A stretch of DNA of 33,361 bases, from assembly GCA_014377015.1 (NCBI GenBank), contig JACMQL010000034.1, positions 1-33,361 on the forward strand. The letters are read 5' to 3'. The stretch's first letter is position 1. The number at the start of each line of letters is the position of its first letter. The position numbers and the translations under genes were made by a program. The notes under the pieces were generated by a model that made no database searches, was not told where the DNA came from, and worked only from the letters and a program-made list of their open reading frames with translations. Below are positions 1-12,440 of this stretch, one piece after another. The DNA is from Actinomycetota bacterium. Lineage in GTDB: Bacteria; Actinomycetota; Actinomycetes; Nanopelagicales; Nanopelagicaceae.

Positions 1-1673
1 AAGCAGGTGTAGCGATTGAATATCGGCTAAACGGACGGGCATTTCGAATTGATTTCATGCTTTCGGGCAGGAACCTATCTGGGCAAGAATCTTTGGTGAT
101 CATAGAACTCAAGCAATGGACCGATGTTGCTCTATCTGATCTATCTGAGCATGTTCGCACCGTTGTCGGTGGAAACATCAGGGATCTCCCACACCCTTCT
201 TACCAGGCTTGGAGTTACTCAAGTCATCTCAAGATGTACAACGAATACGTGTACAGCAACGAGGTGTCCGTAACAGCTTGCGCCTATCTCCACAATTGTA
301 TGGATGCAACTGTAGTAAATGAATCGCGGTACGAAGCCAAGTTGCGCGAAGTCCCAGTTTTTATCAAGGGTCAGTCTTCGGAATTGCGTGAACTGATCAC
401 CAGAAATATTTCGAAAGGCACAGGTACCGCACTTTTAGAGCGGATAGATAGCGCCGTTGTTAGGCCATCGAAACAACTGGCAGAGGCCGTCGGATCAATG
501 CTGAGGGGTCAAGAAGAATTTGTTTTACTTGACGAACAAAAGACAGTTTTGGAAAAGATTGTGAAGGCTTCGAAAGACTCGGTAACGGGCCAAAAGCGAG
601 TTTTGATTATTAACGGAGGGCCAGGGACTGGGAAGTCCGTTATCTCAATTAATGCATTGGCTCGGTTAACTGGCGAAAGATTGAATGCTAAATATGTTAC
701 TCCGAATGCTGCGCCTAGAGCCGTGTTTGAATCAAAACTAAAGAAGATATTCGGCAAGGCCGAGATTAAACATCTTTTTAGCGGATCTGGGTCATTCACG
801 GAATCAGAATCTGAAAGTTTTGACACACTAATTGTGGATGAGGCTCATCGATTAAGGATGAGGTCTGGAATGTTTAAGAATCTGGGTGAAAGTCAAGTTA
901 AAGAAATAATCAATTCCGCACATACCTCAGTGTTTTTCATAGATGAGGCACAAAAAGTTACTTGGTCGGATGTGGGTGAAATTCTGATGATCGAGGAAGT
1001 GGCCAAAGAGGCTGGGGCGTTTGTTGAGCGATTCGAGTTAACCTCGCAGTTCCGTTGTGGAGGTTCTGATGACTACATCGCTTGGTTGGATGAGACACTC
1101 GGCATCCACGCTGATGTCTCACATTATTTCTCGACCGAAAAATTTGATTTTCAGATATTTGACAGTCCTGTTGCTATGCACGAAATAATCAAAGAGAAAA
1201 ACAAAGAGAACAATAAATCCCGAGTGGTTGCGGGCTACTGCTGGGATTGGATTAGTAAGGATAAGCCGAATCTTTCAGATATTTCAATCCCTGAATTTGG
1301 CTACAAAGCCACTTGGAATCTGACGTCGGACGGAGGCGAATGGATTATTAGCCCACATTCGGTGGAGGAAGTCGGATGCATTCATACTTGCCAAGGGTTA
1401 GAGGTTGATTATGTTGGCGTGATTATTGGTCCAGATTTGATCGCCAGAAATGGAGTATTAAGGACCGATCCTTTGGGGCGGGCCAAGACCGACAAATCTT
1501 TGGCTGGTTTTAAGAAGGAATTTAAGGAAGATCCCATAAAGGCAGAATTGAAAGCAGACGAATTGATTCGAAATACTTATCGCACCCTTTTGAGTCGAGG
1601 AATGAAGGGTTGTTATGTGTACTTTACGGATGCGGAAACTGCCCAGTACTTTAGGGACCACTTACCTTCATAG
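1..1673 (+). CDS. PD-(D/E)XK nuclease / DUF2075 superfamily 1 helicase fusion, 5' truncated by window edge
   Basis: The reading frame is open from the first complete codon (position 3), so the gene starts outside the window and the ATG at 57 is internal. The visible N-terminus has a nuclease-like pattern: Asp in RIDFML, then the E-x-K of IIELKQW, then a Q-x-x-x-Y motif in YQAWSY, as in PD-(D/E)XK nucleases. A DUF2075 (COG3410) SF1 ATPase follows: Walker A GGPGTGKS near 616-640, Walker B VDEAHR near 833-850, a second acidic motif FIDEAQK, LTSQFRCGG, the motif V-like HTCQGLEVDYVGV and the motif VI-like YRTLLSRGMKG. At least 556 residues are visible. Proteins of this type are uncharacterised DNA/RNA helicase-nucleases, often in accessory or defence regions (family knowledge). 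The MazG-like gene begins 9 bases downstream, so the two are probably co-transcribed. A role in phage defence is inference. Confidence 0.85.
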   Translation, partial: AGVAIEYRLNGRAFRIDFMLSGRNLSGQESLVIIELKQWTDVALSDLSEHVRTVVGGNIRDLPHPSYQAWSYSSHLKMYNEYVYSNEVSVTACAYLHNCMDATVVNESRYEAKLREVPVFIKGQSSELRELITRNISKGTGTALLERIDSAVVRPSKQLAEAVGSMLRGQEEFVLLDEQKTVLEKIVKASKDSVTGQKRVLIINGGPGTGKSVISINALARLTGERLNAKYVTPNAAPRAVFESKLKKIFGKAEIKHLFSGSGSFTESESESFDTLIVDEAHRLRMRSGMFKNLGESQVKEIINSAHTSVFFIDEAQKVTWSDVGEILMIEEVAKEAGAFVERFELTSQFRCGGSDDYIAWLDETLGIHADVSHYFSTEKFDFQIFDSPVAMHEIIKEKNKENNKSRVVAGYCWDWISKDKPNLSDISIPEFGYKATWNLTSDGGEWIISPHSVEEVGCIHTCQGLEVDYVGVIIGPDLIARNGVLRTDPLGRAKTDKSLAGFKKEFKEDPIKAELKADELIRNTYRTLLSRGMKGCYVYFTDAETAQYFRDHLPS

Positions 1674-1682
1674 GAGTAGCCA

Positions 1683-2003
1683 ATGCCTGCAGATGACCTC
1701 GTTCAATTGACGCGCGAAATAAGGCAATTTGCGGAAGCGCGAGATTGGGGGAAATTTCACACGCCTAAGAACTTAGCTATGGCCATTGCAGGCGAGGCCG
1801 GTGAATTGGCTGCCGAATTTCAATGGATGACTGCTGAGGAAAGTTCGCTTTCGTCACTTTCTGAGGAGAGTTTAGAAGCCATCAGATTCGAAATTGCTGA
1901 CGTGCAGATTTACTTGATGAGGCTTGCAGACGTTCTTTCCGTTGATATTTCAGAAGTTGTACGCAACAAGATCGCGATTAATGAAACTAGATTCTCAAAG
2001 TGA
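1683..2003 (+). CDS. MazG-like nucleotide pyrophosphohydrolase (dCTPP1/RS21-C6-like)
   Basis: A 106-residue all-alpha NTP pyrophosphohydrolase. The conserved FHTPKNLAMAIAGEAGELAAEFQW block supplies Glu38, Glu41 and Glu45, and EIADVQIYLMRLAD supplies Glu70 and Asp73, the metal-binding pattern of the MazG/dCTPP1 superfamily; the length matches single-domain members. These enzymes hydrolyse (d)NTPs to the monophosphate and pyrophosphate, often acting on non-canonical or damaged nucleotides. An AGGAG Shine-Dalgarno overlaps the stop codon of the preceding helicase gene and the start is ATG, so the two genes form a tight pair. Its stop codon is followed with no spacer by a lexA 3' remnant. Together with the nuclease-helicase it may alter nucleotide pools or process nucleic acid in defence; that role is inferred from context only. 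Confidence 0.85.
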   Translation: MPADDLVQLTREIRQFAEARDWGKFHTPKNLAMAIAGEAGELAAEFQWMTAEESSLSSLSEESLEAIRFEIADVQIYLMRLADVLSVDISEVVRNKIAINETRFSK

Positions 2004-2171
2004 CTAACCAACGCTCTTCATAACCGCAATCACCTTGCCCAAGATCTCGCAGCCTCCGCCATCAGTGGGTGCGTAGGCATCATTGGCCGGGAGCAACCAG
2101 ATGTGCCCTTCTGGGCGGGAGAAAGTTTTCACAGTAGCCTGACAAGCAATCAAGGCTGCCGCCATTTCACG
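2004..2171 (-). pseudogene. lexA 3'-end remnant 1 (last 55 codons plus stop)
   Basis: Translated on the minus strand, this stretch reads as the C-terminus of LexA. It includes the block around the catalytic lysine (QATVKTFSR), then GHIWLLPAN, then CEILGKV and a final SVG before TAG. By hand alignment 38 of 55 residues match residues 182-236 of the intact LexA encoded at 9658-10368, with no gap and no internal stop. Many base differences are at third codon positions, so this end evolved as coding sequence before being stranded. It has no start, no DNA-binding domain and no catalytic serine, so it cannot make a repressor. It abuts the MazG gene stop and has the same orientation as intact lexA. 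Likely a displaced or imported attachment-site fragment. Confidence 0.9.
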
Positions 2172-2226
2172 CCTAAAAACCATTTACCAGAGGGGCTTCC
2201 CAAAGTGTGACCTACGCGATACGCTT

Positions 2227-2240
2227 TTGGAACGTTCAAA
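2227..2240. promoter_or_regulatory. Candidate LacI-family operator upstream of sugar operon
   Basis: TTGGAACGTTCAAA is almost a perfect inverted repeat centred on CG, the symmetry expected for a LacI-family operator. It lies 30 bases before the TTG start of the binding-protein gene, and a LacI-type regulator is encoded at the end of the same operon. AACGTT cores recur at 3495-3500 and 3632-3637 but without good flanking symmetry. Confidence 0.5.
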
Positions 2241-2269
2241 TTCTGGACGGGAAATCTAGGAGGATCATT

Positions 2270-3493
2270 TTGAAGCATCGTTTACACGTTGGAGCGGTGC
2301 TTGCAGCATCGATCCTTATATTGCCTTTCGCCCAGGCGGCCCAAGCGGCTGACCCAGTCACCACTATTTCACTTGCTACCTGGGGTTCCTCTCCCTCGGA
2401 GACGGCGGCCCTGAAGGATGCGGTTGCTACTTTTGAAGCCCGTTACCCAACTATCAAGGTTGATCTGATTGTCGATACCGATCACGGCGCGCAAATGGCT
2501 GCCAAGTTCGCATCGCACACCCCACCAGATGTTTTCTACTTAGGCGCAGACGTTGCACAAGATTGGGCAAGTCAGGGAGTTTTGCTTGACCTTATGCCTT
2601 CAATTGCATCCACCAGTTTTAGCCTGGATGCATTCAATAAGAGCTATTTGAAGCCATTCCAAGTTGGCAGCGCTTTGTACGCACTTCCAAAGGATGCTAA
2701 TCCGCTAGTTCTCGAGGGCAATATGACGCTTATGGCGAAAGCCGGTATCAAGAAGTTGCCTAAGACCACTGCGGAATTCGATGCTCAGGCAAAGAAGTTC
2801 TTGAAGAAGAAGATCACTCCAATGTGCGTTGATGCAGATATCAACCGACTCGGTGCATATTTCGTCGCCTTCGGTGGCGGTATTGCAGATGCCAGCGGAA
2901 AGAACTCCTTGCTCAAATCTGCTGGAACCAAGGCAGCAATGAATTGGGTTATGAATAATTACAAGACAGGTGCTTTCAGAACCCCAGCGCAGTTATCCGC
3001 TGGATGGGCTGGCGAAGCATTTGGTAAGTCCAAGTGCGCATACACAATGGAAGGCGCATGGCTTGATCCTTTCCTAAAGGATTCTTTCCCTGACGTCAGC
3101 AAGGTAATGATCAAGGCGCCTCTTCCTAAGGCAAAGCAAGCCGGATCACTTGCCTTCACCGCTGGATATGCAATCGGAAAAGAATCAGCACATCCAGCAC
3201 AAGCGTGGACCTTCATTTCATACATGACAGGTGTTCGTGGCATGACAGTGTGGACCTCATACGGCGTGGCTCTTCCATCGCGTTCGGATGTAGTTACACC
3301 GCTTGGTTATGGCGTTAACGGCGCAGTTGCAAAACTTGCGACAACGGTGACGACTCCTGCTTTCGTGGGCTGGGGCAAAGTTATCGATGCCTTCAATAAC
3401 GAGGCAAAGAAGCAGATTCAGGACAAGAAATTTGTTCCTGCGAAGGCTGCAGCAGCTGTTCTTGCGGCCGCATCAGCAGCTTGGCCAGCCTAA
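2270..3493 (+). CDS. Extracellular solute-binding protein of a carbohydrate ABC transporter (family 1)
   Basis: A MalE/UgpB-like periplasmic-type sugar-binding protein. The frame is open back to a GTG at 2207, but a strong AGGAGG at 2258-2263 sits 6 bases before TTG at 2270, which I take as the start (407 aa). The N-terminus is a classic signal peptide: positive residues, a hydrophobic stretch at about residues 7-20 and a probable cleavage site after AQA at residue 26. No lipobox cysteine is present, unlike many Gram-positive binding proteins, so it may be secreted or held by the permeases. Family features include the early ISLATWGSS strand, the DVFYLG and LPKDANP segments and the late EGAWLDPF block. 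It heads an operon with two permeases. No ATPase gene is present, so it probably uses a shared MsmK/UgpC-type ATPase encoded elsewhere. The substrate is unknown, perhaps an oligosaccharide given the downstream hydrolase. Confidence 0.88.
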   Translation: MKHRLHVGAVLAASILILPFAQAAQAADPVTTISLATWGSSPSETAALKDAVATFEARYPTIKVDLIVDTDHGAQMAAKFASHTPPDVFYLGADVAQDWASQGVLLDLMPSIASTSFSLDAFNKSYLKPFQVGSALYALPKDANPLVLEGNMTLMAKAGIKKLPKTTAEFDAQAKKFLKKKITPMCVDADINRLGAYFVAFGGGIADASGKNSLLKSAGTKAAMNWVMNNYKTGAFRTPAQLSAGWAGEAFGKSKCAYTMEGAWLDPFLKDSFPDVSKVMIKAPLPKAKQAGSLAFTAGYAIGKESAHPAQAWTFISYMTGVRGMTVWTSYGVALPSRSDVVTPLGYGVNGAVAKLATTVTTPAFVGWGKVIDAFNNEAKKQIQDKKFVPAKAAAAVLAAASAAWPA

Positions 3494-3557
3494 AACGTTA
3501 GAACTTATCGCCTCTTGATTGAGACGGTAAGGGCAAGTTGTTAGACCGGGAGTGAGT

Positions 3558-3604
3558 AAGTTTGGTCCGCGTACCTGAAATGGTCGAGGTCGCGGACCAA
3601 ACTT
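3558..3604 (+). other. Intra-operon stem-loop between binding-protein and permease genes
   Basis: Two perfectly complementary 14-base arms (AAGTTTGGTCCGCG at 3558-3571 and its complement at 3591-3604) enclose a 19-base loop. The hairpin sits in the 230-base gap between the binding-protein and first permease genes. There is no clean U-tract, so it is more likely a 3' mRNA-stabilising or partly attenuating hairpin. Such hairpins let the binding protein be made in excess over the permeases in many sugar ABC operons. Confidence 0.7.
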
Positions 3605-3726
3605 CACTTATTTTCGCTCTCGTTGGTTTAAAACGTTAGCTCTGAATTCCCCTCGGCAAGAAGCTCAAAAAATCGTTTGCGCAAAGCGGTAGATAATTTT
3701 CAATTGTGGGAGAGGATGCGGAGCGT

Positions 3727-4659
3727 ATGGCTACCAGCACTATTGAACGAAGTAAGCGAAAGACCAAGATCCAAGAAGCCCTGGTTGGCTGGGGATTTGT
3801 TTCGATTCCGATGGGACTCTTCTTCGTTCTGAGCATCGGTATCTTTTTTTACGCGATCTATATCTCCACCTACAACTGGGGAATCATGGGGCCGCGCGGG
3901 TTTCTTGGAATAGAGAACTACACCAAGGCCATACATGATCCGATCTTTCTCAAGGCAATCCGAAATTCAATTCTTTACGCCGCACTTGTCGTGCCGCTAC
4001 AAACAATGGCCGGCTTGATTCTTGCCCTACTTGTGAACTCGAAGATCAAGGGCTCTCGCTTTTTTAGGTCATCCTTCTATTTCCCATCAGTGGCAAGTAG
4101 CGCGGCAATTACAACTTTGTTCATCTTTCTTATGGCGCCGGAAGGCCTATTTAATAAGATTTTGACCTTCTTCGGAGTTGATGTTCCGAATCTGTTTAAC
4201 CAAGGAGCATGGCTCTCCGATTCTCGCACAGCGCTTTTCTCTGTCATTGGTCTTAACGCTTGGACAACAAGTGGAACCATGATGCTCTTTTACCTAGCGA
4301 ATTTACAAAGTATTGATGGCTCATATACCGAAGCTGCCATCATGGATGGGGCAAGTCGTCGCCAAGTCTTTTGGTATATCACCATGCCACTTTTGAAGCC
4401 GGCTCACTTCTTTGTTGTGACCTCCGGAATGATCGGTGCCTTGCAACTATACGACCAGGCGATCTTGGCCGGTGGCGCTGATGGAAGTCCGGACTATTCG
4501 CTGATGACCATGGTGCTCTACATCTACAACGCCTGCTTTAGGCAATTTGCCTTTGGTTATGCCAGTGCGATTGGCGTGATCTTGTTCATCATTATCTTCT
4601 CGTTAACTATGTTCCAGAAGCTTATTTTTGGAAATGATGCATGGAAGGCGAATGATTAA
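3727..4659 (+). CDS. Carbohydrate ABC transporter permease 1 (MalF/UgpA type)
   Basis: Inner-membrane permease subunit of a CUT1-type sugar importer, about 310 aa with six predicted membrane segments. The EAA loop that docks the ATPase is seen as YTEAAIMDGASRR followed by ITMPLLKP. The frame is open to a GTG at 3706, but that codon has no ribosome site; the ATG at 3727 has GAGAGG about 11 bases upstream and is preferred. The gene overlaps the next permease by a few bases, as usual for MalF-MalG pairs, implying coupled translation and a heterodimeric channel. It belongs with the binding protein at 2270. Specificity cannot be read from the sequence. Confidence 0.88.
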   Translation: MATSTIERSKRKTKIQEALVGWGFVSIPMGLFFVLSIGIFFYAIYISTYNWGIMGPRGFLGIENYTKAIHDPIFLKAIRNSILYAALVVPLQTMAGLILALLVNSKIKGSRFFRSSFYFPSVASSAAITTLFIFLMAPEGLFNKILTFFGVDVPNLFNQGAWLSDSRTALFSVIGLNAWTTSGTMMLFYLANLQSIDGSYTEAAIMDGASRRQVFWYITMPLLKPAHFFVVTSGMIGALQLYDQAILAGGADGSPDYSLMTMVLYIYNACFRQFAFGYASAIGVILFIIIFSLTMFQKLIFGNDAWKAND

Positions 4660-5491
4660 TATGGCTAAATTCAGACGTTATTTCTTTTATGGAACTCTTA
4701 TTGCGTACTCGGCATTTACAATTGTGCCTTTTCTTTGGTCACTGAGCACATCTATAAAGCCGCAGGACGAGGTTTATCAATCAAATCTCATTCCACATAA
4801 CCCCACCGCTCGGGCCTATGCAACTGTTTTTGGAAAGATCCAGCCCAACTTTCCTTCACTCTTTGCCAATTCACTCTTCATCGCGTGCGTTGTTGTGATT
4901 TTGCACTTGATCTTCGCCTCCCTTGCTGGGTACGCCTTCGCCAGACTTCGCTTCCCGGGACGAGATGTGCTCTTCTACTTGGTATTGGGCTCAATGATGA
5001 TTCCGGATCAACTTCGCTTGGTCCCGATTTATCAGTTGATGGTCAAAATGGGGCTCATCAGTGATAGACCTTCAAACTATCTGGCAATCTTTTTGGTCAA
5101 GGCGATTTCCGCGGCGGATATTTTCCTTATGCGACAGTACTTTTTGACGATCCCGCGCGAACTTGAGGATGCGGCAAAGATAGATGGAGCAGGTCCTGTG
5201 CAGACCTTCGTTCGCATCATGCTTCCCAACGCCATGCCAGTCATGGCGACGGTGGCGATTTTGACTTTTCAAGGGACCTGGAACGATTTGTTCTGGCCCT
5301 CAATTATCTTGCAGAGCCCAAATCACTGGACGCTACCTTTCGGCATCTTACAATTTAAGGGACAGTTCTCGACCGATTGGCCGCCGATTATGGCCTTAGT
5401 GGTTCTTTCTACTTTGCCAATTCTCGCTACCTACATCTTCGGGCAGAGATACATAATTAATATGCAGCTTGGCTCATCGGTAAAGGGATAA
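4652..5491 (+). CDS. Carbohydrate ABC transporter permease 2 (MalG/UgpE type)
   Basis: Second permease subunit, about 279 aa with six membrane segments. It shows the MalG-family pattern: an FLWSLSTSIKP segment after the first helix, SLAGYAFARLRFPG, and the EAA loop ELEDAAKIDGAGPVQTF followed by MLPNAMPVM. The start is uncertain: ATG 4652 overlaps the end of permease 1 and has GGAAGG just upstream, while ATG 4661 is equally in frame. The frame also opens to a TTG at 4628 with no support. The protein ends three codons after the conserved IINMQLGSSVKG tail, the usual C-terminus of the family. It is co-transcribed with the genes on both sides. Confidence 0.87.
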   Translation: MINMAKFRRYFFYGTLIAYSAFTIVPFLWSLSTSIKPQDEVYQSNLIPHNPTARAYATVFGKIQPNFPSLFANSLFIACVVVILHLIFASLAGYAFARLRFPGRDVLFYLVLGSMMIPDQLRLVPIYQLMVKMGLISDRPSNYLAIFLVKAISAADIFLMRQYFLTIPRELEDAAKIDGAGPVQTFVRIMLPNAMPVMATVAILTFQGTWNDLFWPSIILQSPNHWTLPFGILQFKGQFSTDWPPIMALVVLSTLPILATYIFGQRYIINMQLGSSVKG

Positions 5492-5493
5492 GC

Positions 5494-6135
5494 ATGCAAG
5501 AGAAGTCGAAGGTACAAGTGCAATCTCCTGTGCGATTTGGGTTGAGTATTTTGTGGACCTTAAATTTTAAGGCCATGCCATCTGCTCTGCTTTGGTCGTT
5601 TTCGCTCTTTGTAAGCATCCAAACGCCTTCCTTCATTGTTCGCCTTATTGCCGTGATGAGTTGTGGCATCGCGGCTTTTTTGGGCAGCCACCTCATTAGT
5701 CGGAGTTTGTTTCCCGGTTCAAAATTTTCATTGAGAGCCATTTTCCAGAACAAACTTAATGTGGGTTTGGTTGTAGTACCCGGGTTGATCTTTGCGATCA
5801 CTCTTGAGAACGTCTCGCGGTACTCCGATTCGGGGCAATTTGTCAGATTGCTAATGGTCTCCAACTTTGTCGCGGCTCTTGTCGTCTGGTTATTCATTCA
5901 AGTTGTGGTCGTACCTATCCGCGTCGTATCTGGGTCGCAATTATCGTCGGCGCAGACGTGGAGTCGCGCCTTCATTTACCTTGCAGAAAAAAGAAAATCT
6001 TTGGCTGTCTCCATGGCATCTCTACTCCTTGGCTGGCCCTTGTTCTTCTTCTACTTCCTGCTCGCATTAACTTTTGCGCAGGCGATGACATTTTCAGCAG
6101 TTGAGCCTGATGATGGGGCAAAAGTTGGTAATTGA
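5494..6135 (+). CDS. Unrecognised multi-pass membrane protein of the sugar operon
   Basis: A 213-residue protein I cannot assign to a family. Hydrophobic stretches near residues 28-45, 46-68, 88-105, 118-142 and 168-195 suggest about five membrane segments. An AAAGGGA ribosome site at the end of the permease gene precedes the ATG by a few bases, so it is co-expressed with the transporter. Its size and operon position resemble DUF624/YesL proteins of Gram-positive sugar operons, but I see no convincing YesL motif. Its 3' end overlaps the start of the hydrolase gene. A role as an accessory or sensory partner of the transporter is possible but unproven. Confidence 0.75.
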   Translation: MQEKSKVQVQSPVRFGLSILWTLNFKAMPSALLWSFSLFVSIQTPSFIVRLIAVMSCGIAAFLGSHLISRSLFPGSKFSLRAIFQNKLNVGLVVVPGLIFAITLENVSRYSDSGQFVRLLMVSNFVAALVVWLFIQVVVVPIRVVSGSQLSSAQTWSRAFIYLAEKRKSLAVSMASLLLGWPLFFFYFLLALTFAQAMTFSAVEPDDGAKVGN

Positions 6136-7522
6136 TTCAGATGTAAAGGTCGGCGAGAAGGTCATCTTAGATAAGCAGGTTTTTAAGGCAGATGATCCGA
6201 TATTTGATCCCACCACGCGCCCAAGTCTTGAGGCGGCTATCGGGATGATTATTGGGAGCCAGAGCGGATTTGAGATCCCTTTCGCTGCTGTGCCGTTGTC
6301 GCATCACGTGGATATGGCCGAACAAAATCTTTACCGTTGTTTATTTGGGCGGGATTCCTTGCTCATTGCAGATTTATTGAGCAAGCGCCGGCCAGAATTG
6401 CGACTCAATGTGCTCTCTTCCTTGGCTTCGGTACAGGGAGTAAACATTGATCTCTTGAGTGAAGAGGAGCCAGGGCGAATTGCGCATGAGGTGAGAAGCG
6501 CCGATGATCTCAGGGCGATTGAATTGGTTGCCAGCGCAAGTTGGAAATTTCCATATTACGGATCCGTCGATGCGACGTTGATCTGGTTGCGAATACTGCG
6601 AGATGTTGCCGTGGAAACACCGACTAATCTAGATATAGAAATAGTCGGGGTTCCATTGTGGCAACGAGCGGCCCAGGCAACTTCGTGGGTATTGAAAAGG
6701 TTAGAGACGCCTTCTGGAATTATTGAATCCCATCGAAGTAATCCCAATGGAATTTCCAATCAAGTATGGAAGGACTCGGGAGATTCCTACATGCACGCCG
6801 ATGGGACTTTGGCGCGGGGAGATTCGACCGCATCAATCGAAACGGTGGGCGAGACCTACGATGCCTTGATTGCAGCTAGCCAGATTCAAGGATTAAGGCC
6901 GAGCGCGCTGTGGCCAGCGAGTGTTGAAGAATTGAAGGAGCGAGCCACCCAGGTGCAACAGCGATTGATAGAACTGATGTGGCTCGGTGATCGCTTTGCA
7001 TTAGGAACCGAAAGAGATGAGCAAGGTATTCAGCGGCCATTTGATTCGCAAGCAAGTAATCAAGGAAGATTATTGGATTCGCAGATCCTGGTAGGAAATG
7101 AATTTGAGCAATATCGTCGTGCAATCGCAGATGCGGTCACTGGCCCCGAACTTTTGGGGGAAACTGGATTGCGAACGCTTTCGGCGAATCATGTCTCGTA
7201 TCGCCCAGGTGGCTACCACACCGGTTCGGCCTGGCCAATGGATGGAGTTTTCGTTGCAAGAGGACTGGCGAGGCAAGGATATGGGCGTGAGGCAAGAATG
7301 TTGGCCGACAAAGTAAAGTCTGCGATTGAAAATTTCGGCGGATATCCAGAATTCTTTAGAGGTGACTGGCCCGAGAATGGCTTAATATCAACATCTGTCG
7401 TAGATATTGTTGGCGAAATTGGAGATATACAAAATCGTAGAAATAGAATCTGCCAACCTCCGCAAATAATCCAAGGATGGTCGGTTGGCGCTTATGCTTG
7501 GCTGAACGAGTTTTCTGGTTAG
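6110..7522 (+). CDS. Amylo-alpha-1,6-glucosidase / debranching-enzyme-like glycoside hydrolase
   Basis: A cytoplasmic alpha/alpha-barrel glycosidase-like protein of about 470 aa, with no signal peptide. Family signatures are FGRDSLLIAD (about residue 76), PYYGSVDATLIWL, NQVWKDSGDSYMHADG, the YRPGGYHTGSAWPMD block and the final QIIQGWSVGAYAWL. This order is typical of the catalytic half of glycogen-debranching-like proteins and related sugar hydrolases (GH15/GH63/GH133-like folds). It lies directly behind the sugar importer, so it probably cleaves the imported di- or oligosaccharide. The start is unclear: tandem ATGs at 6110 and 6113 overlap the previous gene without a strong ribosome site; TTG at 6101 or 6125 is also possible. 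The exact linkage cleaved cannot be deduced. Confidence 0.8.
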   Translation: MMGQKLVIDSDVKVGEKVILDKQVFKADDPIFDPTTRPSLEAAIGMIIGSQSGFEIPFAAVPLSHHVDMAEQNLYRCLFGRDSLLIADLLSKRRPELRLNVLSSLASVQGVNIDLLSEEEPGRIAHEVRSADDLRAIELVASASWKFPYYGSVDATLIWLRILRDVAVETPTNLDIEIVGVPLWQRAAQATSWVLKRLETPSGIIESHRSNPNGISNQVWKDSGDSYMHADGTLARGDSTASIETVGETYDALIAASQIQGLRPSALWPASVEELKERATQVQQRLIELMWLGDRFALGTERDEQGIQRPFDSQASNQGRLLDSQILVGNEFEQYRRAIADAVTGPELLGETGLRTLSANHVSYRPGGYHTGSAWPMDGVFVARGLARQGYGREARMLADKVKSAIENFGGYPEFFRGDWPENGLISTSVVDIVGEIGDIQNRRNRICQPPQIIQGWSVGAYAWLNEFSG

Positions 7523-7528
7523 GAAGCA

Positions 7529-8611
7529 ATGCCAAAGGTAGAAAGAAGCGCTTCACTTCGCGAGGTTGCGGCGCTTGCGGACGTATCTATCCAGACGGTT
7601 TCGAATGTCCTAAATGCCCCGCATATTGTTAAGTCGAAAACGCGCGAGAAAGTTTTGTGGGCGATAAATGATCTTGAGTACATTCCAAATCTATCTGCAC
7701 GACGACTTCGCTCCAAAAAATCATCCTCCATTGCAGTTCGATTAGACCCAAATTTTAGCGAAGGGCAAGATTCGAAAGGTTTGGCCCCCGGCTTCATTCA
7801 GGACGAGTTCGTGTATTGCTTGGTGGAGGCGGCAAATACGCGAGGAATTAAGGTCATTGCCTATACCGTGGCGAATGGGGATTCGGAACTTTCAAAGTTA
7901 AAGACATTTATTAATTCGAGAGACGTTGACGGAATTATTTTGACAGCCACCAGAGAGAAAGATGAGCGGCTGGAATTTCTCGAGGCAAGCAACTCGCCGT
8001 TTTTAAGCTTTGGACGCCCATGGGGCGCCGCCGGGATGTTTTCGACATCAAATCCCTGGATAGACATCGACGGTCGAAGCGGCACTGCTGCGGCAACTCA
8101 AATGTTCTGGGATTCAAACAAGCGAACGATTGGTTTCATCGGCTGGGAAAATCAACAGCCTAAGGATGGAGTTGCGCGCAGTACGGGAGAGGATCGGTAT
8201 CTGGGTTGGTTCGAAAAACTAAGAGAATTGAGCGGTAAATCAAGATCCGATATTTCATTGGCGACGTTTGGAGGCGAATCAATTGAAAGTGGGAGACGCG
8301 CAGCGCGCGAACTCTTGCACGCCGCACCTGAGTTGGACGCAGTTGTGTGCGTTAGCGACACGTTAGCCCTCGGGTGTTTGTTGGAATTCCAAAAGAAAGG
8401 ACTTAACCACATTTTAGTTTCTGGTTTTGATAATAGTCCGGTCTCGAAAGAGTTTGGATTTTCGAGCCTGGATCAAAATTTATCCGAAGTCGCCGAGAGT
8501 GCATTGAAGGTGCTGATGGGCGCAACCGGATTTCAAATCAGGAAAGTCGATTTTAGCGCGGAGCATACAAACGCCCACATTCTCCTTGAACCGAAATTAA
8601 TAGTCCGCTAA
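7529..8611 (+). CDS. LacI-family transcriptional regulator
   Basis: A 360-residue repressor with an N-terminal LacI helix-turn-helix (SLREVAALADVSIQTVSNVLN, then the hinge-helix region NLSARRLRSKKS) and a periplasmic-binding-protein-like sensor domain with the late VVCVSDTLALGCL and HILVSGFDNSPVS strands. It is the last gene of the sugar operon, 6 bases after the hydrolase stop, with an AGGA site. It most likely represses the operon in the absence of its sugar, acting at the palindrome near 2227. The stop codon lies inside the first unit of a tandem lexA-tail repeat, so the cassette boundary falls exactly at its end. Confidence 0.9.
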   Translation: MPKVERSASLREVAALADVSIQTVSNVLNAPHIVKSKTREKVLWAINDLEYIPNLSARRLRSKKSSSIAVRLDPNFSEGQDSKGLAPGFIQDEFVYCLVEAANTRGIKVIAYTVANGDSELSKLKTFINSRDVDGIILTATREKDERLEFLEASNSPFLSFGRPWGAAGMFSTSNPWIDIDGRSGTAAATQMFWDSNKRTIGFIGWENQQPKDGVARSTGEDRYLGWFEKLRELSGKSRSDISLATFGGESIESGRRAARELLHAAPELDAVVCVSDTLALGCLLEFQKKGLNHILVSGFDNSPVSKEFGFSSLDQNLSEVAESALKVLMGATGFQIRKVDFSAEHTNAHILLEPKLIVR

Positions 8612-8651
8612 CAAAACTCCGCTACCCAACGCTCCGCTAACCAACGCTCCT
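8608..8651 (-). repeat. Three tandem ~15-bp copies of the lexA tail
   Basis: Units at 8608-8621 (CTAACAAAACTCCG), 8622-8636 (CTACCCAACGCTCCG) and 8637-8651 (CTAACCAACGCTCCT) are head to tail. Each matches the last 15 bases of lexA: the intact gene has CTACCCCACGCTCCG at 9658-9672 and remnant 1 has CTAACCAACGCTCTT at 2004-2018. The third unit continues into remnant 2. This looks like successive recombination events using the lexA terminus as a core site. Confidence 0.8.
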
Positions 8652-8684
8652 AATAACCGCAGTCACCTTGCCCAAGATTTTGCA
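8637..8684 (-). pseudogene. lexA 3'-end remnant 2 (last 15 codons plus stop)
   Basis: On the minus strand this encodes [15 protein letters not shown] and a stop. Only one residue (Lys for Glu) differs from the end of the intact LexA, yet 9 of 48 bases differ, mostly silently. It differs from remnant 1 at only 5 of the same 48 bases, so the two remnants are closer to each other than to the resident gene. It stops 4 bases before the end of the Fic-like gene and has the same orientation as lexA. Probably a second attachment-type scar. Confidence 0.85.
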
Positions 8685-8688
8685 AATG

Positions 8689-9102
8689 TTAGGAGCGAAC
8701 AAATCTCATTAGCGCGCTTAAATCGTGGCTATCGGCGTCCTTGAGGGCTTGGATGTATTCATGTCGAGCGGGGCCATCTTCGTCAATATTCGAACTGCCC
8801 CAAGTGAATTCTTTTTCACCCAATATACGGAGAAGTTTGTCCGTGATGAGCCGGGCGTGGCGGCCATTTCCATTTACGAAAAGATGAATTTGGACAAGTC
8901 GATGGTGAAAGCGAGCGGTTAACAACTGTTCAACGCTCATCTGGGAACGATCCAACCAAATGTTAGCTTTCAGGATATTTTCTAGTTCTGCTCCGTCTAA
9001 TTCCGATTTAACTGTGATTGCACGGGGAATGAGCCCTTCTTTTTCTTCTTCGGTAAGCGGAGTAGCGCCAGGAGGTCCAGAGAAAATATCTTCAGAACTC
9101 AC
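8689..9102 (-). CDS. Mobile mystery protein B, Fic-domain protein, internally deleted
   Basis: A Fic-family protein of the mobile mystery B type (TIGR02613). It begins with the family hallmark PPGATPLTEEEKEGLIP and carries the Fic signature FHHRLVQIHLFVNGNGRHARL, with catalytic His and the GNGR loop, followed by FTWG and a Y-I-x-AL-x-x-AD block. Fic enzymes usually transfer AMP to target proteins. I choose GTG at 9102 because it overlaps the stop of the upstream gene as GTGA; a TTG at 9135 is possible. The product is 137 aa, whereas family members are recalled as about 200. The segment with the FGDVWRWAG-like helix, between the ANIL helix and the Fic motif, is missing in frame. HPF is HLF here. 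It may be inactive or a minimal form. It pairs with the gene at 9099-9575. Confidence 0.85.
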   Translation of the reverse strand: MSSEDIFSGPPGATPLTEEEKEGLIPRAITVKSELDGAELENILKANIWLDRSQMSVEQLLTARFHHRLVQIHLFVNGNGRHARLITDKLLRILGEKEFTWGSSNIDEDGPARHEYIQALKDADSHDLSALMRFVRS

Positions 9103-9575
9103 TTTGAATTTTGTTTCGGATTCATGGAGTGCCAAACCTTCGGAGAATTCATCAGTTCCGTAACCAAATCCTCATAAGCTGAATCGGTAAGTTTGGTTGC
9201 CTGATCCTCAAGTTTCATTGAATGAGAAACAGTGCCCATGCTTTGGTCGACGATTTTCACTACTTGATTTCGAAGAATGCTTTCCAAACTTGAGTTTGGT
9301 ATGAAGCCATATATGAATGTGCAGTCAAGGGCTTCGGCAGCGCGATTGAGCGAATCCATTCCCGCCCGCCCCTGAGATTCTGATTCTTCAAGTGTGAGCA
9401 CCGATTGACGCGCGATCCCCATGCGGTTTCCAAGGTCGGCTGCGCTCATCCCGAGGGCTTCACGAATGGACTTGATCCAGCCTTGGGGTGGGACAGCAAA
9501 TTCTTCCTTTTTGGGGAGTTTGTTTAACCGGTTATCGAGGGTGCGCCGGTCTCGCACTCGGGATTCTCTCTTCAT
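9099..9575 (-). CDS. Mobile mystery protein A, helix-turn-helix partner
   Basis: A 158-residue DNA-binding protein matching mobile mystery protein A (TIGR02612). The sequence runs from a basic N-terminus through PPQGWIKSIREALGMSAADLG, a Cro/C1-type helix-turn-helix with RQSVLTLEESE, to the family segment LNRAAEALDCTFIYGFIPNSSLE. The ATG at 9575 has GAGAG 8 bases upstream; the open frame reaches back to 9635 without other support. This family is known for occurring as the upstream member of a two-gene cassette with a Fic protein on plasmids and other mobile DNA, as here. It probably regulates the pair and may neutralise the Fic protein, like an antitoxin (inference). It lies directly downstream of lexA in the same direction, between lexA and a lexA remnant. 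Confidence 0.88.
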   Translation of the reverse strand: MKRESRVRDRRTLDNRLNKLPKKEEFAVPPQGWIKSIREALGMSAADLGNRMGIARQSVLTLEESESQGRAGMDSLNRAAEALDCTFIYGFIPNSSLESILRNQVVKIVDQSMGTVSHSMKLEDQATKLTDSAYEDLVTELMNSPKVWHSMNPKQNSK

Positions 9576-9657
9576 GGTTGTGCTCTCGCATTGACATACT
9601 AGAGTTTGCTTTTTATAATAAAAAAAGCATAGCACAACCTGTCAGTAAATCGATGAA

Positions 9658-10368
9658 CTACCCCACGCTCCGAATTACTGCGGTGACTTTGCCCAAGATT
9701 TCGCAATTATCTCCATCGATAGGCGCGTAGGAGCCATTGGCTGGTAACAACCAGATGTGCCCGTCTTTGCGTGAGAAAGTTTTTACAGTTGCTTCGCCAT
9801 CAATCATTGCTGCCACGATCTCGCCCTTTTCGCAATTCTTTTGACTGCGAATGACGACGTAATCTCCATCGCAGATAGCCACATCAATCATTGAATCACC
9901 AATGACTTTGAGCATGAAGAGTTCGCCTTGGCCCACGATTGATTCGGGTAGCGGGAAAGTGTCTTCGATTATCTGCTCAGCAAGGAGTGGGCCACCGGCA
10001 GCGATGCGACCAACGAGTGGGACAAGACGGGTCTTATCGGCTTGCGGAGTGTTCTCAATTTCTGACGGCTCACCCGGAAGGAGAACTTCCATGGCACGCC
10101 CGCGCGAAGGATCGCGGCGGATGAAGCCCTTCTTCTCGAGGGCTTGGAGCTGATACTGGACAGAGGCAGGGGAGGCCAGGCCGGCGGCGGCACCGATTTC
10201 GCGCATGCTGGGTGGGTAGCCATTGGTAATCATGGCGGACTTGATCGCCTGCAGAATCTTGAGCTGGCGAGTGGTTAGCCCATGCTCATCGGCGGGGCCA
10301 TCGGGAAGTTCGGTAATTGCGGCTGAGGTTGGGTCCAGCGTCGCCTCAGGTGTCACTTTTTTAGCCAT
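9658..10368 (-). CDS. lexA: SOS repressor LexA
   Basis: LexA represses DNA-damage genes and self-cleaves when RecA is activated. The 236-residue protein has a winged helix-turn-helix (about 31-95, with [16 protein letters not shown]), the Ala124-Gly125 cleavage site in GRIAAGGP, the catalytic Ser159 in IGDSM and Lys196 in ATVKTF. The ATG at 10368 begins MAKKVT; the frame is open to 10539 but upstream codons show no LexA homology. No clear Shine-Dalgarno is seen. Two LexA boxes upstream indicate autoregulation. The last 15 bases recur in tandem at 8608-8651, and longer 3' copies lie at 2004-2171 and 8637-8684, which implies that this end is an integration target. Confidence 0.97.
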
Positions 10369-10399: not shown

Positions 10400-10415
10400 T
10401 CAAACATCTGTTCGA
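10400..10415. promoter_or_regulatory. LexA box 1 (SOS box)
   Basis: TCAAACATCTGTTCGA matches the actinobacterial SOS box TCGAAC-N4-GTTCGA with one arm mismatch. It lies 32 bases upstream of the lexA start, probably in its leader. Confidence 0.8.
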
Positions 10416-10457: not shown

Positions 10458-10473
10458 TCGAACAGTTGTTCGA
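10458..10473. promoter_or_regulatory. LexA box 2 (SOS box), shared by lexA and the LysM gene
   Basis: TCGAACAGTTGTTCGA is a perfect actinobacterial SOS box. It lies between the divergent lexA and LysM genes, 57 bases before the LysM start codon, and next to a TATAGT-like -10 on the lexA strand. Confidence 0.93.
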
Positions 10474-10925: not shown

Positions 10926-11198
10926 ATGGTACCTAAGGTAAAGGCTAAGGAAAAGACAACACGAGCCGGACGAACAACTTCCACTCGCCTCAGCGCAAAG
11001 AATCAAATAACTATTCCTGTAGATGTAATTCGAAAGGTTGGATTCAAAGTGGGGGAGACAATTAATTGCGCAGTCGGTGAAGACGGCAAAGTAATTTTGT
11101 CTCGTCCACGTAATCCAATTCTTGAATTATCTGGAATTGGCACTGGTTTATATGACAAATTTGACCTCGAAGAAGAACGCAAATCATGGGGCGAGTAG
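10926..11198 (+). CDS. AbrB/MazE-type antitoxin (VapB-like)
   Basis: A 90-residue antitoxin. After a lysine- and arginine-rich N-terminal extension, residues 20-60 form a SpoVT/AbrB swapped-hairpin DNA-binding domain (TRLSAKNQITIPVDVIRKVGF, then VGEDGKVILSRP). The C-terminal tail, rich in acidic residues and ending ERKSWGE, would bind and block the toxin. It overlaps the PIN toxin gene by 13 bases, as expected for a coupled toxin-antitoxin operon, and probably autoregulates its promoter. It sits between the SOS divergon and nrdR, so the pair looks like an insertion into a conserved neighbourhood. Confidence 0.88.
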   Translation: MVPKVKAKEKTTRAGRTTSTRLSAKNQITIPVDVIRKVGFKVGETINCAVGEDGKVILSRPRNPILELSGIGTGLYDKFDLEEERKSWGE

Positions 11199-11572
11199 CT
11201 CTAGATTCATCGGTACTGATTGCACTTTTGAATGACAATGATTCACACCATGATCTTGTTTACTCGCGGATTAAATCTGTAGAAAATCATTACGAAATTT
11301 CCGCGGTGACACTCATGGAGTGCTTGGTAGGGCCATTCATGGAAAGCGCTCGAGCGGCCGCGGAGATTCGACGAAAGATCGCACTGGCGATTGGCTCTAT
11401 CGAATCCGTAACGGACGAGATAGCCGTGGAGGCCGCCAAAATTCGCGCAATGACAAAATTAAAGGCGCCGGATTCGATCATTTGCGCGTCAGCCAGGCTC
11501 ACTGGGGCAACCCTTTGGACCCTTGATCAACGCTTGGCCAAGGCGCACAAGGGGGCGATATTGGTCGCCTGA
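11186..11572 (+). CDS. PIN-domain ribonuclease toxin (VapC-like)
   Basis: A 128-residue PIN-domain protein, the toxin half of the pair. The acidic metal-binding residues are all present: Asp7 in ALDSSVLIALL, Glu45 in TLMECLVGP, Asp96 in APDSIICASA and Asp114 in TLDQRLAKA. VapC toxins are Mg-dependent ribonucleases, often cutting tRNA or rRNA. The start ATG lies inside the antitoxin gene. The intact active site suggests a working toxin. A short hairpin at 11638-11656 follows. Confidence 0.9.
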   Translation: MGRVALDSSVLIALLNDNDSHHDLVYSRIKSVENHYEISAVTLMECLVGPFMESARAAAEIRRKIALAIGSIESVTDEIAVEAAKIRAMTKLKAPDSIICASARLTGATLWTLDQRLAKAHKGAILVA

Positions 11573-11831: not shown

Positions 11832-12365
11832 ATGATTTGCCCATTTTGCCGACATGATGATTCGCGCGTAGTCGATTCTCGCCCCGCCGAAGATGGCACC
11901 CAGATTCGCCGTCGTCGCGAGTGCCCAGAGTGCGGATCACGTTTTTCCACTCAAGAGATGGCTCTGCTCAATATTGTGAAGCGATCTGGAGCCACTGAAC
12001 CATTTAGCCGGGAGAAAGTTGTCGCTGGCGTACGCAAAGCCTGCCAGGGTCGCCCAGTCAATGATGATGATTTAGCTCTGCTTGCCCAGCGGGTGGAGGA
12101 GGCGCTTCGCAAGATGGGTCAGGCAGAAGTTGAGGCACAGGAAGTTGGCATGGCCATCCTCGCGCCACTTCGCGAATTAGATGAGGTTGCCTACCTGCGT
12201 TATGCCTCGGTCTACCGTAACTTTAACTCCCTTGAAGATTTCGAAGGCGAGATCGCAGTTTTGCGAGCGACGCATTCGAGCACAACACAAACAACTGGGC
12301 AAAGTAATTCCCCAATTACAGCGAACACGTCATTAAGTAATCGAACTTCCGCACTCAAAAGTTAA
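11832..12365 (+). CDS. nrdR: Transcriptional repressor NrdR
   Basis: NrdR senses ATP/dATP and represses ribonucleotide reductase genes. The 177-residue protein has the N-terminal zinc ribbon (Cys3, Cys6, Cys31, Cys34), the [15 protein letters not shown] segment, and an ATP-cone domain from about 46 to 136 with [14 protein letters not shown] and [11 protein letters not shown]. The ATG has AGGAG about 10 bases upstream. It is longer than typical NrdR (about 150-160) because of a Ser/Thr/Asn-rich tail of about 30 residues with no recognisable function. It precedes nrdJ by 75 bases, the usual actinobacterial nrdRJ arrangement. Confidence 0.96.
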
Positions 12366-12440
12366 CGCTGTAATAAGCGCGCCCGTTTTACGCACTACAA
12401 AGAATTAACACGTACTACTAAAAGAACCGGAGAAATACGA

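What the first reader, a model, noticed from the sequence alone, without database searches (positions are those of the whole stretch)
2004..10368. lexA 3' end acts as a recurrent integration site stacking unrelated cassettes
Three unrelated cassettes (nuclease-helicase/MazG, sugar ABC operon, mobile mystery A/B) lie in series against the 3' end of intact lexA, and the two junctions between them carry lexA 3' ends (2004-2171 and 8637-8684) in the same orientation as lexA. The remnants code in frame with mostly silent differences. This is the pattern left when elements integrate into a gene end and restore it, as known for tRNA genes and for tycheposons carrying partial tRNAs. I know of no described system using lexA. 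An element that rewrites the end of the SOS repressor gene would sit right next to the damage switch that controls many prophages and ICEs.
Basis: partly seen in the sequence, partly recalled or inferred. Interest (0 to 1): 0.9.

Follow-up and report, generated by a model that had tools for sequence, protein, structure and literature searches.

The report
Gene cassettes stacked against lexA's end
In small lake-dwelling Actinobacteria, blocks of foreign genes, often toxin-antitoxin pairs, have repeatedly been inserted at the end of the gene for the DNA-damage repressor LexA, giving lexA a new end and pushing its old end downstream as a fossil.

Summary
Intact lexA (9658-10368, minus) is followed by two 3'-terminal lexA fragments on its strand (8637-8684; 2004-2168), the only other matches above noise in this genome. 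Relatives show the same: six remnants in five genomes of three genera, all downstream, on lexA's strand and reaching its stop. Two empty-site pairs (G076/G035, G069/G021) show displacement: DNA that follows intact lexA in the empty genome follows the remnant in the occupied one. In 1.2 Mb of G021, lexA alone of 1108 ORFs has such a copy.
Remnant 5' boundaries vary (41, 48, 70, 165, about 300, about 600 nt), and G000, G021 and G035 show only two tyrosine-recombinase genes each, probably XerC/XerD. This fits one-sided homologous displacement, as proposed for Vibrio T6SS arrays, better than a fixed att site. In three genomes the insert is only a toxin-antitoxin-like operon, from unrelated families; I propose that addiction keeps inserts lying between direct repeats. 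No SOS box lies in the window's inserts. My searches found no lexA precedent. Verdict: new variant of a known kind.

The parts
9658..10368 (-). intact lexA (236 aa; LexA DNA-binding + S24 peptidase), the anchor
   Evidence: Pfam PF01726, PF00717
10401..10472 (-). two LexA operators in the lexA promoter (10401-10414 and 10459-10472); the only SOS-box-like sites in the window at <=1 mismatch
   Evidence: consensus recalled
9099..9635 (-). mobile mystery protein A (HTH, antitoxin-like); the longest ORF begins 22 nt after the lexA stop
   Evidence: NCBIfam TIGR02612 above cut-off
8689..9135 (-). mobile mystery protein B (Fic family), lacking about 65 internal residues against the G015 homologue
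   Evidence: TIGR02613 124.3 bits against cut-off 124.4; PF02661; alignment
8637..8684 (-). R2: displaced last 48 nt of lexA, starting 4 nt after the mobile mystery B stop
8607..8650 (-). 2-3 tandem copies of a ~15-bp unit made of the lexA end, running into the LacI stop
   Evidence: read from sequence
7529..8611 (+). LacI-type regulator, last gene of the inserted sugar block
   Evidence: PF00356
2207..7522 (+). sugar uptake block: solute-binding protein, two permease-like ORFs, membrane ORF, glycoside hydrolase; lies between R1 and R2
   Evidence: PF01547, PF22422; permeases read from sequence, not searched
2004..2168 (-). R1: displaced last 165 nt of lexA, abutting the MazG-like stop codon
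57..2003 (+). older flank: Schlafen-type helicase (window probably starts inside it) and MazG-like protein
   Evidence: PF09848, PF12643; same pair after the lexA remnant in G002

Best explanation
The 3' end of lexA is a recurrent displacement site in these freshwater Actinobacteria. SHOWN: gene blocks were inserted at the lexA 3' end, and in two empty-site pairs the former lexA end was pushed downstream and still joins the old downstream DNA. The window carries two such displaced ends. INFERRED: incoming DNA that carried a lexA end plus a block paired by homology within or upstream of lexA on one side and joined by a non-homologous or microhomologous junction on the other, inside the recipient's lexA. 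This is homology-facilitated one-sided recombination, probably after DNA uptake. One full lexA survives at the promoter and a 5'-truncated old copy is left behind. Because the insert then lies between direct repeats of lexA, it should be easy to delete again; toxin-antitoxin operons resist deletion by addiction, which would explain why they are over-represented at sites with remnants.
For: Six remnants in five genomes (G000 x2, G002, G015, G021, G035), all same strand, downstream and reaching the stop; each is also found with the genome's own lexA as query. Empty/occupied pairs G076/G035 (homology resumes at lexA -41) and G069/G021 (at -70). Controls: of 1108 ORFs in 1.2 Mb of G021 only lexA has a same-strand copy outside an ORF within 40 kb; 5 of 74 lexA loci against 1 of 794 other genes in those loci, Fisher p 2e-5. 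Variable 5' boundaries, with internal deletions in the G002 and G015 remnants. Ends look replaced: G002 remnant against its own intact lexA differs at 26 of 294 in the body and 11 of 48 at the end (p 0.009); G000 against G002 74 of 512 and 13 of 48 (p 0.034); R2 against G002 only 6 of 48. G016 lexA is a mosaic. ComEC (PF03772) in 5 of 5 remnant genomes. Toxin-antitoxin-like operon directly after lexA in 4 of 5 remnant loci and 4 of 38 other loci of the five variable genera (p 0.0026, post hoc).
Against: Remnants of this kind were seen at no other gene of G021, whereas a general one-sided process should also hit other genes; this favours a lexA-specific mechanism. Ku is absent in 5 of 5, so the non-homologous end is not classical NHEJ. 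Three boundaries lie close together (-41, -48 and, in the disrupted G017 lexA, -43), although I read the last as an AAAT microhomology. Most lexA loci with other neighbours show no remnant, though contigs are often short (23 of 74 have under 5 kb downstream). The G021 insert shows no toxin-antitoxin pair next to lexA. The Fic protein in the window is internally deleted, so addiction may not act there now. The replaced-end statistics are weak and pairs are not independent: the last 21 nt drop in g1, g7 and g15 but not in g2 and g16; among hflX-linked genera they do not drop in g5, g9, g10, g12 and g17, while g8 is low throughout; 3rd-position profiles show only a modest effect.
Confidence: 0.55

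Rival explanations
1. Site-specific integration: elements with a tyrosine or serine recombinase (own or supplied in trans) use the lexA 3' end as attB, and the recombinase genes were later lost, as at tRNA genes.
For: All remnants 3'-terminal, lexA-only in G021, exact empty sites, two remnants of 41 and 48 nt.
Against: 5' boundaries from 41 to about 600 nt. Of 60 PF00589 matches in 21 genus genomes none lies in a lexA stretch; only G015 has matches on its lexA contig, over 200 kb away; lexA was located in 18 of the 21. G000, G021 and G035 have two matches each, taken as XerC/XerD. Resolvase family: 1 of 5 genomes, a 44-residue fragment in G000. No lexA-end match in viral contigs with two degenerate patterns.
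Confidence: 0.25
2. Campbell-type single crossover: circular DNA carrying a 3' fragment of lexA integrates by RecA, duplicating that fragment.
For: Explains variable remnant length and the long G002 copy (codon ~34 on) with a body 91% identical to intact lexA.
Against: No circular carrier was seen. In G000 (to R2), G002 and G035 the insert holds only a two-gene operon.
Confidence: 0.13
3. Ordinary debris: lexA duplicated in tandem by chance and later insertions separated the copies.
For: Pseudogene-like decay of the G002 and G015 copies.
Against: Recurs in three genera, always 3'-terminal and same strand, with native flank attached in two pairs, and at no other gene of G021.
Confidence: 0.05

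Closest known systems
Effector-immunity arrays of Vibrio T6SS clusters (Kirchberger 2017, PMC5361080; passages seen)
   Same: A new module is inserted at a gene, the old 3' end and older genes are shifted back in series, no integrase; homology-facilitated illegitimate recombination proposed.
   Different: There the effector gene is itself the target and cargo; here the target is a housekeeping SOS repressor that is kept whole, and the cargo is unrelated (toxin-antitoxin, sugar uptake).
Additive flexible genomic islands, e.g. tRNA-Lys island of Ca. Methylopumilus (PMC10872708; passages seen)
   Same: Freshwater streamlined bacteria; variable blocks with repeats of the target gene's 3' end.
   Different: There the repeat is a constant 20 nt of a tRNA gene; here the gene codes for a protein and repeat length varies.
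Tycheposons (as described in passages of PMC10872708; original paper recalled only)
   Same: Cargo blocks at gene ends; partial copies of the target gene (recalled).
   Different: They have a tRNA at the border and a tyrosine recombinase; neither was found here.
Integron cassette arrays (recalled)
   Same: Newest block next to the anchor, older ones pushed back; toxin-antitoxin cassettes.
   Different: No PF00589-type integrase in the lexA stretches of the genus and the junctions are lexA ends; attC sites were not searched for.

Membership tests
Integrase-borne genomic island at a gene 3' end | remnant of target gene end at the far junction | tested here: met
   (five genomes; other insertions lack it)
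Integrase-borne genomic island at a gene 3' end | one fixed crossover core for all insertions | tested here: not met
   remnants of 41, 48, 70, 165, ~300, ~600 nt
Integrase-borne genomic island at a gene 3' end | recombinase gene in the element | tested here: not met
   a trans-acting enzyme cannot be excluded
Tycheposon | tRNA at the border and tyrosine recombinase | tested here: not met
   no tRNA in the window
Displacement array by homology-facilitated illegitimate recombination | empty site and displaced native gene end | tested here: met
Displacement array by homology-facilitated illegitimate recombination | homologous anchor on one side only, scattered junctions on the other | tested here: inconclusive
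   junctions scattered, mosaic lexA in G016; no donor sequence found
Displacement array by homology-facilitated illegitimate recombination | arises on DNA uptake in culture | not testable with these tools
   only ComEC presence
Toxin-antitoxin module (mobile mystery A/B) | both family models match | tested here: met
   A above cut-off; B 0.1 bit below cut-off in the window, 229 bits in G005
Toxin-antitoxin module (mobile mystery A/B) | toxicity and neutralisation | not testable with these tools
   none

The most novel reading that the evidence does not exclude
lexA serves as a protein-coding 'attachment gene' for minimal, recombinase-free addiction cassettes: toxin-antitoxin operons of unrelated families travel with a lexA 3' end, replace the end of the SOS repressor gene on arrival, and hold themselves there by addiction, opening the site for further cargo to stack.
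Probability: 0.25. Interest if true: 0.82.

Novelty: new variant of a known kind. Interest (0 to 1): 0.62.

Why it matters
It shows, with empty-site pairs that include complete genomes, how streamlined bacteria can build variable islands beside a protein gene with no integrase in sight. lexA becomes an ordered record, because these insertions leave fossils of its end. The over-representation of toxin-antitoxin operons between direct repeats would turn the old question of what chromosomal toxin-antitoxin systems are for into a testable case: stabilising unstable inserts.

Tried and rejected
LexA control of the inserts: in the window no SOS box at <=1 mismatch apart from the lexA promoter; in seven other loci scanned to +3000, single-mismatch sites at +363 in G015 and +2804 in G035 were not pursued. 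Viral carriers: two degenerate lexA-end patterns gave 0 hits. tRNA target: none in the window. Other families of the class: 0 of 20 lexA loci have a same-strand remnant at E 1e-3, some with only 1-5 kb downstream; hflX lies within about 12 kb of lexA in 14 of 20. Insertions at the same place without remnant: G008/G019 against G013/G016, G040/G079/G026 against G084, G043/G073 against G029/G054, G057 against G076. A repeat beside the VapBC-like pair at 10926-11572: best score 18, taken as noise. G017's lexA is disrupted by a deletion, by my reading at a 4-nt microhomology; not counted as a remnant. A species tree from RpoB was planned; the loci could not be cut out. In one search I computed P for >=14 of 48 although 13 were observed; corrected. 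In one search the toxin-antitoxin comparison used 3 of 36; replaced by 4 of 38 after YoeB/YefM was noticed in G080.

Rows dropped or uneven: of 76 oriented loci, G012 and G043 (contig ends in or at lexA) are left out of the 74; two of the 74 are second contigs of G039 and G043. Median downstream length is 9.7 kb, 23 of 74 have under 5 kb and 32 have 15 kb or more, so remnants can be missed. In G064 and G017 the script misplaced the lexA stop because the frame is broken. Toxin-antitoxin status of the 43 loci rests on Pfam/NCBIfam for proteins and on reading the first genes, or a same-cluster gene, for the rest, so one could be missed. In one search the 35 raw hits were sorted by eye: those reaching a stop were paralogue pairs or the lexA remnant itself, except G050.
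Full report
WHAT IS THERE. The window is G000:C17:1-33361 of a draft genome (1.72 Mb, 50 contigs). Named loci found with this LexA carry mixed titles, among them a Candidatus Planktophila MAG, a genus of the family Ca. Nanopelagicaceae, so the host is probably a freshwater acI-type actinobacterium; this is inference. lexA (9658-10368, minus) is normal (PF01726, PF00717) with two LexA boxes in its promoter. Going downstream from lexA come: the mobile mystery A/B pair (HTH plus Fic); a 48-nt copy of the lexA end (R2); a sugar-uptake block with a LacI regulator; a 165-nt copy of the lexA end (R1); and a MazG-like protein with a Schlafen-type helicase. These two copies are the only other lexA matches in the genome above noise.

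RELATIVES. I searched 150 relatives for the lexA end (106 matched at E 1e-5) and fetched lexA loci of part of them. Of 76 oriented loci, 74 have the lexA 3' end and at least 600 nt after it. Upstream, a LysM gene sits next to lexA in all but five of the oriented loci, and those five begin inside or within 200 nt of lexA. Downstream, genera fall into two groups. hflX was found after lexA, directly or behind an insert of a few genes, in all loci of g5, g9, g10, g12, g14 and g17 (23 of 23), in 2 of 3 of g8 and in 1 of 3 of g6. In g1, g2, g7, g15 and g16 it was in none of 43 stretches, and in G015, G021, G035, G037, G046 and G048 it lies hundreds of kb from lexA. The first downstream gene there differs widely: by script 12 families in 17 g1 loci (about 10 once spurious short ORFs in G019 and G020 are set aside), 4 in 5 (g2), 6 in 7 (g7), 4 in 7 (g15) and 6 in 7 (g16). 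In 20 loci of other families of the class, hflX lies within about 12 kb of lexA in 14 and no same-strand remnant was found, so lexA near hflX looks like the old state.

REMNANTS. Six lexA remnants were found in five genomes of three genera: G000 (two), G002, G015, G021 and G035. All lie downstream of intact lexA, on its strand; the alignments reach to within 8 nt of the lexA stop and the sequences run to a stop codon there. G002's copy reaches back to about codon 34 with an internal deletion; G015's starts near codon 138 and has lost codons, by my reading between two copies of ATGATCGATG. Controls: in 1.2 of 1.22 Mb of G021, 1108 ORFs gave 9 same-strand matches within 40 kb, 8 of them between full paralogues and one the lexA remnant. 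Among 794 other genes in the lexA loci only one (G050, 23 nt) had a stop-reaching copy outside a paralogue. Five of 74 against 1 of 794 gives p 2e-5.

EMPTY SITES. In G076 lexA is followed directly by gene c63. In G035, 595 bp lie between, and homology to G076 resumes at lexA -41 and runs through the stop into c63. In G069 lexA is followed by gene c24. In G021, 15 kb lie between, and homology resumes at lexA -70 and runs into c24. So in these two the remnant is the displaced native end, and the end now on lexA should have come with the insert. In G000 and G002 the remnant is followed by the same MazG gene, which suggests that lexA once abutted it.

HOW IT WORKS. A fixed att site is not supported: remnant lengths are 41, 48, 70, 165, about 300 and about 600 nt. 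Of 60 PF00589 matches in the 21 genus genomes none lies in a lexA stretch; G015 has two on its 1.08-Mb lexA contig, more than 200 kb away; lexA was located in 18 of the 21. G000, G021 and G035 have two PF00589 matches each, which I take for XerC and XerD (the names are mine, and G000 is a draft). A resolvase match was found in 1 of 5 genomes, a 44-residue fragment in G000. Ku was absent in 5 of 5; ComEC was present in 5 of 5. The end of lexA may be replaced: G002 intact against its remnant differs at 26 of 294 in the body and 11 of 48 at the end; G000 against G002 74 of 512 and 13 of 48; R2 against G002 6 of 48. Across pairs, the last 21 nt are less conserved than the rest in g1, g7 and g15, not in g2 and g16; among hflX-linked genera they are not in g9, g10, g12, g17 and g5, and g8 is low throughout. 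Pairs with the same insert keep the end (G007/G011, G008/G019, G046/G086), but these are also the most similar pairs overall. The third-position effect is modest (61 against 44% in g1, 46 against 40% in the other variable genera, 44 against 38% in linked genera). G016's lexA is a mosaic, foreign-looking in its 5' two thirds, which points to recombination inside lexA. Together these fit incoming DNA anchored by homology at lexA and joined non-homologously inside the recipient lexA.

TOXIN-ANTITOXIN. Between intact lexA and its (first) remnant lies nothing but a toxin-antitoxin-like operon in G000 (mobile mystery A/B), G002 (AbiEi/AbiEii) and G035 (DUF2283/DUF4258; calling this pair toxin-antitoxin is recalled, not tested). 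Such pairs also follow lexA directly in G005, G015 and G018 (mobile mystery A/B; G015 by clustering), G014 (NYN plus AbiEi_4) and G080 (YoeB/YefM): 8 of 43 loci in the five variable genera, 4 of 5 with remnants and 4 of 38 without (p 0.0026, post hoc). In G015 the pair is followed by a sugar block before the remnant; in G021 no such pair was seen next to lexA. Close lexA relatives carry different pairs at the same place (G000 and G002; G014 and G018; closeness from lexA identity only). In the window the Fic protein lacks about 65 residues, so its toxicity is doubtful now. My explanation is survivorship: an insert between direct repeats is easily deleted, and addiction counters that. This is inference.

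AGAINST. If the process were general, other genes should show displaced ends, and in G021 none did. Most lexA loci with other neighbours show no remnant. Numbers of remnants are small, contigs are often short, pair tests are not independent, and the toxin-antitoxin test was framed after seeing the data.

LITERATURE. Searches for lexA as an integration site (listings only, showing 20 of 25) gave nothing relevant; the library lacks most subscription journals. Passages of Kirchberger 2017 propose homology-facilitated illegitimate recombination that shifts back old 3' ends; passages of PMC10872708 describe additive islands with repeats of the last 20 nt of a tRNA gene. E. coli's mutS-rpoS variable region is another analogue that I recall but did not look up.

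VERDICT. Observation confirmed and extended with empty sites; interpretation partly supported; new variant of a known kind, at a new and unusual target gene, with an interesting toxin-antitoxin association.

Noticed in passing
window 10926-11572: A MazE-like/PIN (VapBC-type) pair sits between LysM and NrdR, on the other side of lexA; G002 and G005 also have extra DNA there. No flanking repeat found.
   Followed up: partly
L022 about 1090-1140 (G017): lexA at its normal place is disrupted by a deletion, by my reading at an AAAT microhomology, and followed by an IS3-type transposase; either LexA is lost or the draft assembly is wrong.
   Followed up: partly
L076, G050, about +2448 to +4599 after lexA: The last 23 nt of a gene that looks like a CoA transferase are repeated exactly about 0.9 kb further on, before hflX: perhaps a similar gene-end insertion.
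   Followed up: no
L009, L013/L032, L019, L045, window 57-2003: MazG-like plus Schlafen-type helicase, in the relatives with a PDC-S41-type gene beside it, recurs near lexA in two genera; possibly a defence unit.
   Followed up: no
L020 about 12072-13162 (G015): Right after the lexA remnant come a Vsr-type endonuclease and a further ORF without a match in that library.
   Followed up: no
L021 (G016): lexA is a mosaic: its 5' two thirds are at best 71-74% identical per window to any relative compared, its 3' third 86-90%.
   Followed up: partly
L044 and L045 (G039): One complete lexA and a second, different lexA end at the start of another contig, followed by the helicase/MazG genes; a further remnant or mixed strains. 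Not counted among the six.
   Followed up: no
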